A stretch of 52,675 nt of DNA from a virus, in the IMG/VR virus record IMGVR_UViG_3300009506_000045, positions 1 to 52,675 of that record. One strand, written 5' to 3'. The stretch's first letter is position 1; each line of letters opens with the position of its first letter. The notes under the pieces are model-generated. The model saw only the letters and a program-made list of their open reading frames with translations. It was not told the DNA's origin and did no database searches. Both the position numbers and the translations under genes were made by a program. Below are positions 33,820-38,732 of the stretch, one piece after another.

Positions 33820-34074
33820 ATGGCCCGCGTTCGTCACCCTTACTGGCTCTTCGGTGGGCGAGACGACCGGGCCAAGGGCGGGATCGACGACCTCCTGGCG
33901 ACGTTCGCCAACCTGGACGCGGCCCTCGCCTACCTGGCCGAGCAGGAGCAGGGGTCCCGGGCTAACGGGGACTGGTACCAGCTCGTCGACGTTACCACGG
34001 CCTACGCGGTCCGCTCCCGCTACTACCTCGCGCGGGAGGGCTGGTTCGACTACCGAGAGGAGACGCGCCGATGA
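33820..34074 (+). CDS. Hypothetical protein
   Basis: An 84-residue protein behind GGAGG. Aromatic-rich N terminus (HPYWLFGGRDDRAKGG), a helical middle (NLDAALAYLAEQEQG), and an ending with a short beta part. The pattern of a short strand, an Ala-rich helix and a WYQLVDV strand occurs in many small phage proteins of unknown role. It overlaps the next gene by four bases. Confidence 0.62.
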   Translation: MARVRHPYWLFGGRDDRAKGGIDDLLATFANLDAALAYLAEQEQGSRANGDWYQLVDVTTAYAVRSRYYLAREGWFDYREETRR

Positions 34075-34487
34075 ACGTAGGGTTTTCGAGCGACCGCTCT
34101 TCTTTTTTCGCTCGATGGTTCCAAAAACGATACACCGAGGCAAGGCCAAACGAGAGGGTGCTCTGCCTGGACTTCGACGGGGTGCTGCACCGGTTCGAGA
34201 CACCTTTCGCCGACCCCGCGGTGATCCCAGACCCGCCCGTACCTCTCGCAGGAGCGTTCGTCCGGGCGGCCCTCCTGGCCTACGACCGCGTGGTGATCTG
34301 CTCGTGCCGGGCGCGGGTTCGACGAGGACGCCGAGCGATCCGACGCTGGCTCGAGGTCTGGGGTTTTCCTCAAGGTCTCGAGGTGACCTGCCGAAAACCC
34401 TTCGCGGAGGCCTACCTCGACGACCGGGGGATCCGGTTCGAGGGGAGCTGGCCGTGGGACCTGGTTCGGGGGGATCATCATGCTTGA
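34071..34487 (+). CDS. HAD-superfamily phosphatase
   Basis: A 138-residue protein. Motif I is CLDFDGVLH (nucleophile Asp), motif II VVICSCRAR (Ser), motif III the Lys in VTCRKPFAEAY, and motif IV YLDDRGIRF. It lacks a large cap domain, so its substrate may be a nucleotide or a DNA/RNA 3' phosphate. It belongs to a run of tightly overlapping middle genes. Confidence 0.78.
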   Translation: MNVGFSSDRSSFFARWFQKRYTEARPNERVLCLDFDGVLHRFETPFADPAVIPDPPVPLAGAFVRAALLAYDRVVICSCRARVRRGRRAIRRWLEVWGFPQGLEVTCRKPFAEAYLDDRGIRFEGSWPWDLVRGDHHA

Positions 34488-34688: not shown

Positions 34689-35699
34689 ATGACGTCCGAC
34701 GCCCCGCGCGAGCCTTTGCATAGGTCCGGCACCTGGACACCCCCGCCCCTCTCGTCGACCGTGCTCCGGGACCACGAGCGCTGCCCGCTGAGGCCGCGGC
34801 TGCTGGAGTATGGGAAGGACCAGATCGGCTCCCTGCCCGCGGCGGCCGGGGTGATCTTCGACGACCTGCTCCGGAGGCGCCTACGGCTTGACCTCTCCCT
34901 GCCGGAGCGGGACGAGGACGTGGCCTGGATCTCACCCCTGATCCTGCCCCAGGCGCGCGTGCTCGGGAAGCGCCTCTACCAGGCCTACCTCCGGTCCGGG
35001 GCCTACGACGCCCTCCTCAGCGAGGACGTGAGGGACCCCGACCCCCCGCGAGCCTGGCGGGCGCTGAGAAGGGCGGGCCCCGCGGTCGCGCTCGGCTGGT
35101 CGGGGACCGAGGAGGAGGTGCGCGAGCAGGTGCGGGCTGCCCGAGACGAGGGAGCCGAGGCCTACGTGCTCTCCGCCCGGCTCGACGGGCTGCTGGACGG
35201 GCCAGGGGTACCGCCAAAGGGCGAGGGTCCACCTCGCGTGATCGACTACAAGACGACCGGGGTGCTCCGCGGGGCCTCGGTGCCGGGCGGCTACGTGCGC
35301 CGGTGGCGCGGCGGGGTGAACCTCGGAGGGGACCAGCTCCCCGGCCCGCCGGTCGGGAGGCCCGGCTGGCACGACCAGCTCGGCTTCTACGCGGCCATGA
35401 GCAGCACCCACCACGTCGGCGTGGAGGCGGTCGTCGTGGGCCGAGGCTGGCGGACCGTCGACGTCGCGTCCTACCGCTGGGACGTCGCCTCGGCGGAGCT
35501 CCTGGTGATCGTGCGGCGCTACCTCGAGGCGGCCCGCTCCCTGGCCGGCCCGTGCCCGACCGTCGAGGCCGGGGCGCGATGCTGGGCCTACAACCGGCTC
35601 TGCCGGGCCGCGGACCGCTGCCCGGCCAGAGGAGGTGAACCAGGAGGTGAACCAGGAGGCAAACCAGGAGGTGAACCAGAAGGTGAACCGTGTGCCTGA
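34689..35699 (+). CDS. RecB/Cas4-like PD-(D/E)xK nuclease, probable Fe-S protein (paralogue 1)
   Basis: A 336-residue protein. LSSTVLRDHERCPLR near the N terminus holds the first cysteine; SARLDGLLDG and RVIDYKTTG (~184-190) supply the catalytic Asp and D-x-K; and ARCWAYNRLCRAADRC near 296-312 holds three more cysteines, as in the iron-staple cluster of AddB/Cas4 enzymes. It has a paralogue at 37013 with the same layout. The C-terminal tail (GGEPGGEPGGKPGGEP) is encoded by a run of Shine-Dalgarno-like repeats serving the next gene, which it overlaps by ten bases. Confidence 0.82.
   Translation: MTSDAPREPLHRSGTWTPPPLSSTVLRDHERCPLRPRLLEYGKDQIGSLPAAAGVIFDDLLRRRLRLDLSLPERDEDVAWISPLILPQARVLGKRLYQAYLRSGAYDALLSEDVRDPDPPRAWRALRRAGPAVALGWSGTEEEVREQVRAARDEGAEAYVLSARLDGLLDGPGVPPKGEGPPRVIDYKTTGVLRGASVPGGYVRRWRGGVNLGGDQLPGPPVGRPGWHDQLGFYAAMSSTHHVGVEAVVVGRGWRTVDVASYRWDVASAELLVIVRRYLEAARSLAGPCPTVEAGARCWAYNRLCRAADRCPARGGEPGGEPGGKPGGEPEGEPCA
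35630..35689 (+). repeat. 12-bp repeat: five tandem Shine-Dalgarno-like units before an MCL gene
   Basis: Units AGGAGGTGAACC, AGGAGGTGAACC, AGGAGGCAAACC, AGGAGGTGAACC and AGAAGGTGAACC end right at GTG 35690. Each carries an anti-16S-like AGGAGGTGA. They also encode the Gly-Glu-Pro tail of the nuclease. Whether they act as a ribosome loading array or only show repeat expansion is open. Confidence 0.9.
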
Positions 35700-36133
35700 G
35701 CCTGGTCGACGAGATCCACGACCCGCCCCTCGAGGAGGAGCGGACCGGCTGGAAGGTCTTCGCGCGCGGAGGCTACCCGGTGATAACGGGGCTCCGCAGG
35801 GAGGTCCCTACGCGGGTCTGGGTCGATGAACACGGTTACCGGATCCGTGCGCGTTTGGAAGCGATCCGCATCACCAACGACGTATCGTACCCGACCGGGT
35901 GGCACGTTTTCACCAACCTTGACGGAGCGAAGGCCCTTCACGCGCAGCTTCAGTCGGCCTGGAACCCCTGCCCCATCCACCGGGTTCGTTACCGCAGGAT
36001 CGTCGCGGAGGGTCTACAGGGCTCCCGGCGGGTCGACGTAGCGAAGGAGATCTACCTCGAGGGGCGATACAGCTTCGAGGACGGGACCGTCGAGGAGGTC
36101 GGAGATAGCTCAGGGGGTGAACCGTGTGCCTGA
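35690..36133 (+). CDS. MCL-family protein, paralogue 1
   Basis: A 147-residue protein of a family with four members here. All begin GTG-TGC-CT(N) or TTG, giving Met-Cys-Leu. Shared blocks are EER-x-GWKVF, VW(L/V)-x-E-x-GYR, YPTGWHVF, VRYRRIVA and VDVA-x-E. After Met removal Cys2 would be the free N terminus, as in SRAP and Ntn enzymes; the conserved His in GWHVF could assist. Function unknown; members of this kind occur in other phages. The C terminus GGEPCA overlaps the next gene's start by ten bases. Confidence 0.7.
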   Translation: MCLSLVDEIHDPPLEEERTGWKVFARGGYPVITGLRREVPTRVWVDEHGYRIRARLEAIRITNDVSYPTGWHVFTNLDGAKALHAQLQSAWNPCPIHRVRYRRIVAEGLQGSRRVDVAKEIYLEGRYSFEDGTVEEVGDSSGGEPCA

Positions 36134-36585
36134 CCAGCTTGCAACGGCTGTACGCTCAGCCGGTCATGGAGGAACGGGTCGGCTGGAAGGTGGTAGCCCG
36201 AAGGGGCGACACCTACACCCTGGCGATGCAAGGTCGGCGCGACGAGGCCCTCCCAGCTCGGGTCTGGCTCCACGAGGCAGGCTACCGTAGCTACGCGGAC
36301 CTCTCCGTGCTGAACGCCGGGGATACCATCCCCGCCGTCGGCCCAGAGTACCCAACCGGGTGGCACGTCTTCCGGGAGCTCCGAGCGGCACTAGCCTACC
36401 GCCAGGACCTAGCATATTTTTACGTGAACCTTACCCCCGTGGTCGTCCGGGTGCGCTACCGACGAACGGTCGCGACGGGATGGCAGGTCAACCCGGCCTT
36501 TGGCAGGGCGGTGGTCGAGGTGGCGGAGGAGCTTCTCCTCGAGGGGACCTTCGAGGAGCTGACCGGAGGTGAGCCGTGTGCTTGA
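36124..36585 (+). CDS. MCL-family protein, paralogue 2
   Basis: A 153-residue protein with MCLTSLQRLY at the start, EERVGWKVVARRGDTY, ARVWLHEAGYRSY, YPTGWHVF, RVRYRRTVATG and a VEVAEELLLEG end. The first and last ~60 residues align with paralogue 1; the middle differs in length. It ends GGEPCA like paralogue 1 and overlaps the next member by ten bases, so the boundary sequence itself is conserved. Function unknown. Confidence 0.7.
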   Translation: MCLTSLQRLYAQPVMEERVGWKVVARRGDTYTLAMQGRRDEALPARVWLHEAGYRSYADLSVLNAGDTIPAVGPEYPTGWHVFRELRAALAYRQDLAYFYVNLTPVVVRVRYRRTVATGWQVNPAFGRAVVEVAEELLLEGTFEELTGGEPCA

Positions 36586-37061
36586 GCAAGGTGCTCGCCG
36601 CCTACCCCGAGCCCGAGGAGCGGGAGCTTAGCGGCTGGAAGGTCTTCTACAGGGAGCCGAACGGCTCGCTGCAATCGCTGTTTTACGGCGCGGTACGTTG
36701 GCCCGCCGGGCTGCCGATCGGTACCTGGGTCCACGAACGCGCGGGGCGCATCGACCCTTCAGAGAGGGTCGGGCCCCCCCGTTTTGGCACCCGGGTCAGC
36801 CGCCAGCCAACCTACCACCTCGGCTGGCACGTCTTTCGGACCCGCCGAGCGGCCGAGGCCTACCGCTGCGCGGAGCATGAAGCGGAGGTGGTCCGGCGGG
36901 TCCGGTACCGGAAAATGGTCGTCCGCGGCCGGCAGGAGGGCTACCGGGTCGACGTCGCCCTGGAGCTATTCATCGAGCCTGAACCACATATCAGCGAACG
37001 AGGAGACACCCGATGCCTGAGACCCGCGAGCCGGTCGTCGCCGACGCGATCGACGCCCTGA
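36576..37061 (+). CDS. MCL-family protein, paralogue 3, with altered 3' end
   Basis: A 161-residue protein: MCLSKVLAAYPEPEERELSG, GTWVHERAGRID, YHLGWHVF, RVRYRKMVVRG and VDVALELFIEPEP. After about residue 140 it continues as ERGDTRCLRPASRSSPTRST, which does not resemble the family and overlaps the next gene by 49 bases, so its original stop was probably lost when the second nuclease gene joined. The 35 bases at 36948-36982 recur downstream of that nuclease. Function unknown. Confidence 0.65.
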   Translation: MCLSKVLAAYPEPEERELSGWKVFYREPNGSLQSLFYGAVRWPAGLPIGTWVHERAGRIDPSERVGPPRFGTRVSRQPTYHLGWHVFRTRRAAEAYRCAEHEAEVVRRVRYRKMVVRGRQEGYRVDVALELFIEPEPHISERGDTRCLRPASRSSPTRSTP

Positions 37062-38092
37062 GCTCGAGCAAGCTCGCCGCGTGCGAACGCTGCCCCGAGC
37101 GCTGCCGGCGCCTCTACTGCCGGGGGCCCCGCGAGCACGTCCACTCGGTCTACCAGGCCGCCGGCGCCGTGCTCGGCGGCCGCGCGAAGCGCTGGCTCGC
37201 GGAACGGCTCGATCTGCCCTGCCCGAGCCTCAAGGAGCTCACGGGCTGGGTCTCGCGGCTCAACGTGCGCGGCTGGAGCCTCGGGGGCCAGCTCTGGGAG
37301 GGCCACCGGCGGACGGGCGGCCTCAAGGCGCTCGCGCGCGAGGTGACGGCCGTGGAGCCGACCCGGCTGCTGCCGGGCGCCGAGCCCGACCCCAAGGACG
37401 CGCACGGCAGCGGCTGGCGCGTGCGGGGCGAGCTCGAGGGGCGCCCGCTGACGATGCGGCCCGACGTGCTCGGCCTCTCGGGCCTGCCCGGGCCGTGGAT
37501 CGGGATCAGTCTGGGCCCGGCAATGACGCACAACACGATCCAGAGTCGGAGCCCCCTCGAGGCTGCACGGCTCCAGTTCGACACGGTCCTCGACCTCAAG
37601 ACCGCGGGCGTCGTGCGCGGGGCGAGCGGGCATCCGCTCTACCTGCGGCGCTGGAAGGGCGGCGTCGACGTCGGGATGCACCCCGACCTCGCAGCGCGCG
37701 CCCGGGAGGCCGCGGTGGACCGGGAGGGCCGCCCGGTCCCGGCCGGGGCGCGTGACCCCTACTCGCTCCTCGCGATCGAGGAGCTCCCGCCCGAGTGGGC
37801 GCTCCAGCTCGGCCTCTACGCGCTCGGGCTCGGCGTGCGTCGGGTCGGAATTGACCTCGTCTACGCCCGGCCGGGCTGGCGGGCGGTCGAGTGCGTGCAG
37901 TATCGGGCCCACCTGACGGGGCGCTTCGAGGACGAGCTCCGGGCGCGCGTGCGGCGCTTCTGGGCGTGGGCGGACGCGACGCCGGCCGCGGAGCCGGCCG
38001 AGGCGCGGCCGGGGCGCGAGACCTGCTGGGCCTACAACAGCCTCTGCGAGGTCGGGGAGGACTGCGCGGCACGCCTCGAGGCGGGTCTCTGA
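37013..38092 (+). CDS. RecB/Cas4-like PD-(D/E)xK nuclease, probable Fe-S protein (paralogue 2)
   Basis: A 359-residue protein. CERCPERC (24-31) lies near the N terminus, MRPDVLGL and VLDLKTAG (~191-198) form the PD-(D/E)xK active site, and CWAYNSLCEVGEDC lies near the C terminus. The layout matches paralogue 1, with longer linkers. Base use is visibly richer in CGC, GCG and GCC codons than its neighbours. It is flanked by fragments of an MCL gene, which suggests insertion by recombination. These enzymes trim or resect DNA ends; two in one phage is unusual. Confidence 0.82.
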   Translation: MPETREPVVADAIDALSSSKLAACERCPERCRRLYCRGPREHVHSVYQAAGAVLGGRAKRWLAERLDLPCPSLKELTGWVSRLNVRGWSLGGQLWEGHRRTGGLKALAREVTAVEPTRLLPGAEPDPKDAHGSGWRVRGELEGRPLTMRPDVLGLSGLPGPWIGISLGPAMTHNTIQSRSPLEAARLQFDTVLDLKTAGVVRGASGHPLYLRRWKGGVDVGMHPDLAARAREAAVDREGRPVPAGARDPYSLLAIEELPPEWALQLGLYALGLGVRRVGIDLVYARPGWRAVECVQYRAHLTGRFEDELRARVRRFWAWADATPAAEPAEARPGRETCWAYNSLCEVGEDCAARLEAGL

Positions 38093-38094
38093 GC

Positions 38095-38160
38095 CCCGGG
38101 GTTATCTCGATCTGACCGTCGACGTCGCCCTGGAGCCTGTTCATCGAGCCTGGGGTCACC
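38095..38160 (+). pseudogene. Relic of an MCL-family gene
   Basis: CCCGGGGTTATCTCGATCTG at 38096 matches 38470-38489 of paralogue 4, and 38118-38152 matches the 3' ends of paralogues 3 (36948-36982) and 4 (38652-38686). The two parts are joined by a deletion of the sequence between them, and one extra base shifts the frame (VDVALEPVHRAW instead of VDVALELFIEP). It is a decayed fifth copy in the 97-base gap after nuclease 2. Confidence 0.75.
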
Positions 38161-38189
38161 GAGCCGGGTAACGCCCAGGAGGGTCTACC

Positions 38190-38732
38190 GTGTGCCTCAA
38201 CGTGATCGAACGAACCTACGATCCTCCGCTCCAGGAGGAACGCGTCGGCTGGAAGCTCTTTCAGACGAAGGGCGGGAAGCTCTATCCCGCGGCCCGCGGG
38301 ATCGGACCCTACCGAAGCGGAGCCTGGCTCGATGAGGTCGAGCATCGTGAGCGTCCTCCCTGCCCGGAATCTAGCTATATCGCCAGCCGTAGCCTCAAGA
38401 TCTACCGGACCGGCTGGCACGTGTTCCAGACCAGGAAGGACGCTGAGGAGGCTCTTCGATGCTTCTCGGCCCGGGGTTACCCCGATCTGACCGTCCGGAA
38501 GGTCCGCTACAAGGGGATCGTGGTATCGGGGCGAGAGGAGCATCCTCTACCCGGCTACCGTGGTCTTACGCGGGGAACGTGTGGCGGTCACCCGGTGCCG
38601 CGGGGCGTCACCACCGACCTCACCGTTTCGATCCCTACGATCGCTCTGAACGTCGACGTCGCCCTGGATCTGTTCATCGAGCCTGACCCACGGAGCCCGG
38701 AGCCTGACCCACGTCCCAACCTTACGAGGTGA
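38190..38732 (+). CDS. MCL-family protein, paralogue 4
   Basis: A 180-residue protein: MCLNVIERTYDPPLQEERVG, GAWLDEVEHRER, YRTGWHVFQTRKDA, KVRYKGIVVSGRE and VDVALDLFIEPDP. It carries an extra ~35 residues between KGIVVSG and VDVA (a Gly/Pro/Thr-rich stretch), absent from the other three. It is read from GTG with AGGAGGG upstream. Function unknown. Confidence 0.68.
   Translation: MCLNVIERTYDPPLQEERVGWKLFQTKGGKLYPAARGIGPYRSGAWLDEVEHRERPPCPESSYIASRSLKIYRTGWHVFQTRKDAEEALRCFSARGYPDLTVRKVRYKGIVVSGREEHPLPGYRGLTRGTCGGHPVPRGVTTDLTVSIPTIALNVDVALDLFIEPDPRSPEPDPRPNLTR

What the first reader, a model, noticed from the sequence alone, without database searches (positions are those of the whole stretch)
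34689..38732. Interleaved array of four Met-Cys-Leu paralogues and two RecB/Cas4-like nucleases
Seen: nuclease, MCL1, MCL2, MCL3, nuclease 2, a relic, MCL4, nearly all overlapping. All four small proteins start GTG-TGC-(CTN/TTG), so Cys2 becomes N-terminal after Met removal, and all keep GWHVF. Known: SRAP proteins (HMCES/YedK) and Ntn enzymes use such an N-terminal Cys as nucleophile. Inferred: the MCL proteins may be N-terminal-Cys enzymes or DNA-reactive proteins working with Fe-S nucleases, and the array may diversify like an anti-defence or DNA-processing module.
Basis: partly seen in the sequence, partly recalled or inferred. Interest (0 to 1): 0.85.

Follow-up and report, generated by a model that had tools for sequence, protein, structure and literature searches.

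The report
Phage protein family with N-terminal cysteine
Four look-alike small genes in this uncultured phage belong to a phage protein family absent from the databases checked, whose members all start with an exposed cysteine and share a lysine and a histidine on a predicted ADP-ribosyltransferase-like fold; the two DNA-cutting enzymes beside them here are mostly not neighbours in other phages.

Summary
In detail: two PD-(D/E)xK nucleases, four MCL paralogues and a relic lie at 34689-38732, with 10-base overlaps. Database scans find no named family for MCL. Pattern and profile scans of IMG/VR gave 27 further viral contigs with relatives and an alignment of 40 proteins at 19% mean column identity. 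Invariant in it are Met1, Cys2, one Lys, one Gly and one His. Cys2 held in all 12 copies found without asking for it, and starts are marked by Shine-Dalgarno sites. The family was not found in annotated phages (six queries) or in about 800 bacterial genomes. It expanded independently in several phages; the window's four copies form one clade. The nuclease link does not recur: one of 27 records has a nuclease within 2 kb. No SRAP or Ntn resemblance appeared. Two confident AlphaFold models match ADP-ribosyltransferase-like folds weakly in the PDB (BC2332, toxins, PARPs, Tpt1) and phage RIIB/DUF7666 domains in BFVD. My reading: stand-alone accessory proteins with an ART-like fold whose mature N-terminal Cys, with Lys and His, acts on or traps a small ligand. 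Fold likely; activity inferred; Cys-His distance could not be measured.

The parts
34689..35699 (+). Nuclease 1, RecB/Cas4-like PD-(D/E)xK, with a (GGEP)n C-terminal tail made by a 12-bp repeat
   Evidence: Pfam PDDEXK_1 E=7e-4; D186-x-K188, QLGxY, four Cys shared with nuclease 2
35630..35689 (+). Five tandem copies of AGGAGGTGAACC, each a Shine-Dalgarno core, ending at the MCL1 start
   Evidence: Tandem Repeats Finder score 99; sequence
35690..36133 (+). MCL1, 147 aa; C2, K22, H72 are family invariants
   Evidence: AlphaFold pLDDT 89.5, pTM 0.85
36124..36585 (+). MCL2, 153 aa, sister of MCL1
36576..37061 (+). MCL3, 161 aa, sister of MCL4; last 49 nt overlap nuclease 2
37013..38092 (+). Nuclease 2, diverged paralogue of nuclease 1
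   Evidence: 35% identity over shared motifs and four Cys; no Pfam match of its own
38095..38134 (+). Relic: two MCL4-like fragments joined by a deletion
   Evidence: 92% and 93% identity to MCL4 segments
38190..38732 (+). MCL4, 180 aa, with an insertion before its last strand

Best explanation
MCL1-4 are a lineage-specific tandem expansion of a phage protein family that the databases searched do not name. Each is a small single-domain protein of about 105-180 residues. After Met removal the mature chain begins with Cys (inferred from established MetAP specificity). The predicted fold is ART-like and closest to the RIIB/DUF7666 domains of other phages. Cys2, one Lys on an early strand (K22 in MCL1) and the His of GWH (H72) are the only invariant polar residues. 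I think they form one site that binds, and perhaps covalently captures or modifies, a small ligand such as a nucleotide-sugar or aldehyde-bearing sugar. The proteins act alone as accessory host-takeover or counter-defence factors; extra copies raise dose or widen specificity. The nucleases are incidental neighbours in one operon. Shown: family, invariant residues, expansion, lack of a recurrent nuclease link. Supported by prediction: fold. Inferred: site, ligand, accessory role.
For: 27 further viral contigs carry relatives. In 40 proteins at 19% mean column identity the invariants are M1, C2, K, G, H. All 12 copies found without an N-terminal requirement have MC. Starts carry Shine-Dalgarno sites and codons at positions 2 and 3 vary. 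Two AlphaFold models of distant members are confident (pLDDT 89.5 and 89.6). In the second, the top five by probability are ART folds (2aua, Tpt1/KptA). Literature places BC2332/2aua and DUF952 in the ART superfamily. BFVD gives DUF7666 and RIIB proteins at probability near 1.0. The four copies form a clade and other phages expanded independently. No recurrent neighbour. Purifying selection between orthologues L017/L018: dN 0.15, dS 1.05.
Against: No PDB fold match reaches E below 0.001. Profile-profile comparison with RIIB and DUF952 is not significant (P=0.15 and 0.09; column shuffles reach as high). The classical ART triads are absent. No ligand or activity is shown. No defence system or NAD-related gene was found linked to the family.
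Confidence: 0.42

Rival explanations
1. The MCL proteins are non-enzymatic adaptors or inhibitors on an ART-like scaffold, as RIIB-type domains might be; Cys2, Lys and His hold the N-terminal hairpin together or bind a metal, and copy number follows different host targets.
For: Classical catalytic triads missing; Foldseek kinship with RIIB, a non-enzymatic protein as far as known; the N-terminus is modelled with high confidence (mean pLDDT 94 for residues 1-10), so it is packed rather than flexible; independent tandem expansions.
Against: Exactly three polar residues, Cys2 among them, are invariant at 19% mean identity, and Cys2 is directly behind the initiator Met in every copy, which a merely structural Cys would not need.
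Confidence: 0.3
2. One reading: N-terminal-Cys enzymes (SRAP- or Ntn-like) acting with the Fe-S nucleases as one DNA-processing module.
For: Translational coupling and overlaps with nuclease 1; a nuclease lies about 1.5 kb from the MCL gene in one other record, G001; invariant Cys2.
Against: In the other 26 relative-bearing records no PD-(D/E)xK nuclease was found within 9 kb on the linear contigs, and most records with a match have it 9-50 kb away. The G001 nuclease has no detectable blastp similarity to nuclease 1. No SRAP or Ntn fold among the listed matches. No MCGR or MCGI motif. The nuclease pair itself had no relative in viral contigs.
Confidence: 0.08
3. MCL proteins are active NAD-dependent mono-ADP-ribosyltransferases that modify host proteins, like T4 Alt or ModA.
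For: ART-like fold signals; phage ARTs are known host-takeover enzymes (PMC7824862).
Against: Lys, not Arg or His, stands in the early-strand position; the late Glu of VAKEI is not invariant (VARRM, VVRQI, VAKWI, VCKQI); no ART family model matches.
Confidence: 0.07
4. Cys2 is only a by-product of the overlapping start/stop GTGTGCCTGA.
For: Three of the four window genes start inside that overlap.
Against: MCL4 and the relatives keep MC without such an overlap, with either Cys codon.
Confidence: 0.01

Closest known systems
RIIB C-terminal region / DUF7666 domain proteins of phages
   Same: Foldseek probability near 1.0, TM about 0.45-0.5; some RIIBs share an aromatic-Lys (AWK) followed by G-L/F-H
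   Different: RIIB is larger, has Cys at His+2 (GLHVC) instead of at residue 2; sequence profiles do not match significantly; 6 of the 13 RIIB sequences fetched lacked the GxHxC motif as searched
BC2332 (PDB 2aua; DUF2441), SCOP d.166.1.6 in the ART superfamily
   Same: Best PDB fold match, probability 0.87 and 0.38 in two models
   Different: No sequence match; larger; no N-terminal Cys reported; E-values 0.1 and 1.3
DUF952 (CC0527-like, ART superfamily)
   Same: Short proteins with YK(I/V) ... W ... GF(I)H order of motifs
   Different: hhalign P=0.09, not significant; no N-terminal Cys rule; bacterial, not phage
SRAP (YedK/HMCES)
   Same: Cys2 exposed after Met removal
   Different: No MCGR motif, no fold match among the listed hits
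Class II glutamine amidotransferases (Ntn, MCGI start)
   Same: Catalytic Cys directly after Met1
   Different: No MCGI motif; predicted fold is not the alpha-beta-beta-alpha sandwich

Membership tests
SRAP (YedK/HMCES) | N-terminal M-C-G-R motif with Cys2 | tested here: not met
   Cys2 present, but residue 3 is L/I/V/M and residue 4 varies
SRAP (YedK/HMCES) | SRAP fold or family model | tested here: not met
   No Pfam match in 31 members; no SRAP structure among the 50 listed Foldseek matches of either model
SRAP (YedK/HMCES) | Thiazolidine crosslink with abasic-site DNA | not testable with these tools
   needs purified protein
Ntn hydrolases / class II amidotransferases | alpha-beta-beta-alpha sandwich with N-terminal nucleophile | tested here: not met
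   Models are beta-rich with one main helix; no Ntn structure among listed matches
ART superfamily (fold) | ART-like split beta fold | tested here: inconclusive
   ART structures dominate the higher-probability PDB matches of two models, but no E below 0.001
Canonical ARTs | R-S-E or H-Y-E catalytic triad | tested here: not met
   Invariant residues are C2, K, H; no invariant Arg or Glu
RIIB / DUF7666 | Sequence-profile homology | tested here: not met
   hhalign P=0.15-0.17, within the range of shuffled columns
RIIB / DUF7666 | Shared fold | tested here: met
   BFVD Foldseek probability about 1.0, TMq 0.45-0.57 for the top ten or so; E-values 8e-4 to 2e-2
RecB/Cas4-like PD-(D/E)xK nuclease (neighbouring genes) | D...D-x-K plus QxxxY motifs and family model | tested here: met
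   Motifs in both; PDDEXK_1 E=7e-4 for nuclease 1 only
RecB/Cas4-like PD-(D/E)xK nuclease (neighbouring genes) | 4Fe-4S cluster by four Cys | not testable with these tools
   Four conserved Cys in plausible spacing; metal content needs experiment
MCL family (defined here) | Met-Cys start with invariant Lys and His | tested here: met
   40 of 40 aligned; 12 of 12 copies found without N-terminal requirement

The most novel reading that the evidence does not exclude
A phage-only family in which an ART-like pocket has been turned into a covalent trap: the mature N-terminal Cys (a 1,2-aminothiol, which reacts with aldehydes to give thiazolidines) captures the open-chain aldehyde of ADP-ribose or a related sugar-nucleotide signal of bacterial immunity. 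Tandem copies would be diversified sponges.
Probability: 0.08. Interest if true: 0.9.

Novelty: new variant of a known kind. Interest (0 to 1): 0.55.

Why it matters
A widespread phage protein family that Pfam, PHROGs, NCBIfam and PADLOC do not recognise, with an N-terminal Cys, a Lys and a His held through extreme divergence, is a good candidate for new chemistry. Its structural likeness to the RIIB region would also tie a small, testable protein to RIIB, whose biochemical activity is, as far as I know, still open. Recurrent tandem expansion suggests selection for dose or specificity in the phage-host conflict.

Tried and rejected
Pfam, PHROGs, NCBIfam and PADLOC scans of MCL proteins: nothing above noise; phrog_30118 (unknown function) matched three members at best E=0.002. 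PDB sequence searches: noise. tblastn of six members against 50,697 phage records: no convincing match. GTDB contig scans: 16 and 23 candidate stretches, none in the family; profile search of about 800 bacterial genomes of two phyla plus a few others: none, while the same kind of search hit 26 of 32 viral records. Reciprocal search from the nucleases: no relatives in viral contigs, so that test is empty rather than negative. hhalign with RIIB and DUF952: not significant. Caulobacter phage Seuss gp116, a weak tblastn hit, was looked at and dropped. Overlap artefact as the source of Cys2: rejected. Paper searches for the family, DUF7666, RIIB as ART: nothing direct. Bias noted: three of the DNA scans required TGY at codon 2, so only the 12 copies found otherwise count as evidence for Cys2.
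Full report
OBSERVATION. The window is a complete IMG/VR record of 52,675 bases with tail, portal, DNA polymerase A and methyltransferase genes, so it is a tailed phage; its host is unknown. The four MCL genes start GTG-TGC-CTG/CTG/TTG/CTC. MCL1-3 each overlap the preceding stop by 10 nt in the string GTGTGCCTGA or GTGTGCTTGA, and MCL3 overlaps nuclease 2 by 49 nt. All have coding-like codon-position GC. The relic upstream of MCL4 is two fused MCL4-like fragments. The two nucleases are 35% identical to each other, with RecB-type motifs and four conserved Cys; only nuclease 1 is recognised by Pfam, just under the curated cut-off.

FAMILY. Searches with the four proteins gave one distant phage relative (L005), then another (L007), and degenerate DNA patterns gave many more. 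A profile search of the parent records confirmed relatives in 26 of 32 records and found additional copies, and one more record came from a search with the N-terminus removed (L089). In the final alignment of 40 proteins the mean column identity is 19%, and the only invariant columns are Met1, Cys2, a Lys, a Gly and a His. Because the pattern scans demanded TGY at codon 2, I counted separately the copies found without that demand: L005, L007, L089, two in L077, L078, L079, two in L080, L081, L085 and L086; all 12 begin Met-Cys. In two further records the reading frame is broken, but the start still reads MCL. Most starts have a clear Shine-Dalgarno site at the right distance, Cys2 is encoded by both TGT and TGC, and residue 3 by nine codons. 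The constraint is therefore on the protein, not on the DNA or on gene overlap.

DISTRIBUTION AND EXPANSION. Six family members used as tblastn queries found no convincing match in 50,697 annotated phage records, and profile search of about 800 bacterial genomes found none. The family thus looks phage-specific and so far known only from metagenomes; the bacterial sample covered mainly two phyla. Several phages carry arrays: six copies in G012, about six or seven in the 241-kb G022, three in G019, four here. A maximum-likelihood tree puts the window's four in one clade (99/93) as (MCL1,MCL2) and (MCL3,MCL4), the three of G019 in another (100/99), with separate expansions in G012 and G022. MCL3 and MCL4 share a 40-nt block at 93% DNA identity near their 3' ends although the proteins are about 41% identical, which suggests recombination within the array. 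Between the orthologues L017 and L018, dN is 0.15 and dS 1.05, purifying selection; paralogue pairs give ratios of roughly 0.3-0.6, constrained but looser, with dS near saturation in the window.

NUCLEASE LINK. PDDEXK_1 or phrog_2139 matches were found in 12 of the 27 relative-bearing records, but only in G001 does one lie near an MCL gene (about 1.5 kb); elsewhere the distance is 9-50 kb or more on the linear contig. The G001 nuclease shows no blastp similarity to nuclease 1. Clustering of all ORFs within up to 8 kb in 25 loci found no gene family other than MCL in more than three records. The nucleases are best seen as neighbours in this operon. The reciprocal search from the nucleases returned no relatives, so it is uninformative.

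FOLD. AlphaFold models of MCL1 (pLDDT 89.5, pTM 0.85) and of the minimal relative L011 (89.6, 0.83) are confident and beta-rich. The PDB has no match below E=0.001. Yet the higher-probability matches of both models are nearly all ADP-ribosyltransferase folds: for MCL1 BC2332/2aua (0.87), LT-IIb, cholera A1 and PARPs; for L011 BC2332 (0.38) and several Tpt1/KptA structures. BC2332 is classed with the ART superfamily (SCOP d.166.1.6, PMC3000352; toxin-like active-site match, PMC3024214), and Pfam's ART clan includes DUF2441 and DUF952 (PMC7955679). In viral structures the best matches are unnamed small phage proteins, a DUF7666 protein and many RIIB proteins (probability near 1.0). Sequence profiles do not confirm this: hhalign P is 0.15 for RIIB and 0.09 for DUF952, and column-shuffled controls score as high. 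I therefore call the fold 'ART-like, RIIB/DUF7666-type' as likely but not proven.

MECHANISM. Shown: an invariant Cys at position 2, an invariant Lys and an invariant His. From established knowledge of methionine aminopeptidase, Met before Cys is removed, so the mature N-terminus should be Cys. Inferred: the three residues form one site. In the shortest members a tight hairpin between the N-terminal strand and the GYK strand would place Cys2 opposite the Lys, but the hairpin length varies and the tool gives no coordinates, so this is only a suggestion. The absence of an invariant Arg or Glu argues against ordinary NAD-dependent transfer. The most economical reading is an accessory phage protein whose ART-like pocket binds a nucleotide- or sugar-like ligand, with Cys catalysing or forming a covalent bond. 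The main rival is a non-enzymatic adaptor.

VERDICT. The N-terminal-Cys idea survives and is strengthened. The SRAP/Ntn and nuclease-partner ideas are not supported. The family is not named in the libraries searched and is structurally a variant of a known fold group, with unknown chemistry.

Noticed in passing
window 35630-35689: Five tandem 12-bp units AGGAGGTGAACC, each a Shine-Dalgarno core, directly upstream of MCL1; they also encode the Gly-Glu-Pro tail of nuclease 1.
   Followed up: partly
window 36948-36987 and 38652-38691: MCL3 and MCL4 share 40 nt at 93% near their 3' ends despite low protein identity, suggesting gene conversion within the array.
   Followed up: partly
L083 and L084 (records G030, G031): A family member reads MCLDSVKFFAPRKK and continues as AGVGYKVF only after a -1 shift at A_AAA_AAG: programmed frameshift or a homopolymer error.
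   Followed up: partly
L085:440-940 (record G013): A very distant member (AWKIL ... GFHAY) that may bridge this family to other phage MCL-starting proteins.
   Followed up: partly
T4 RIIB (L115:466-1404) and Seuss RIIB (L116:20534-21661): The C-terminal region of RIIB has an AWK ... GLHxC pattern reminiscent of MCL GWK ... GWHVF, raising the question whether RIIB carries an ART-like domain.
   Followed up: partly
window 34071-34487: Small HAD-like phosphatase/kinase-type protein (phrog_1238 and HAD_SAK_2 weak match) just upstream of the array.
   Followed up: no
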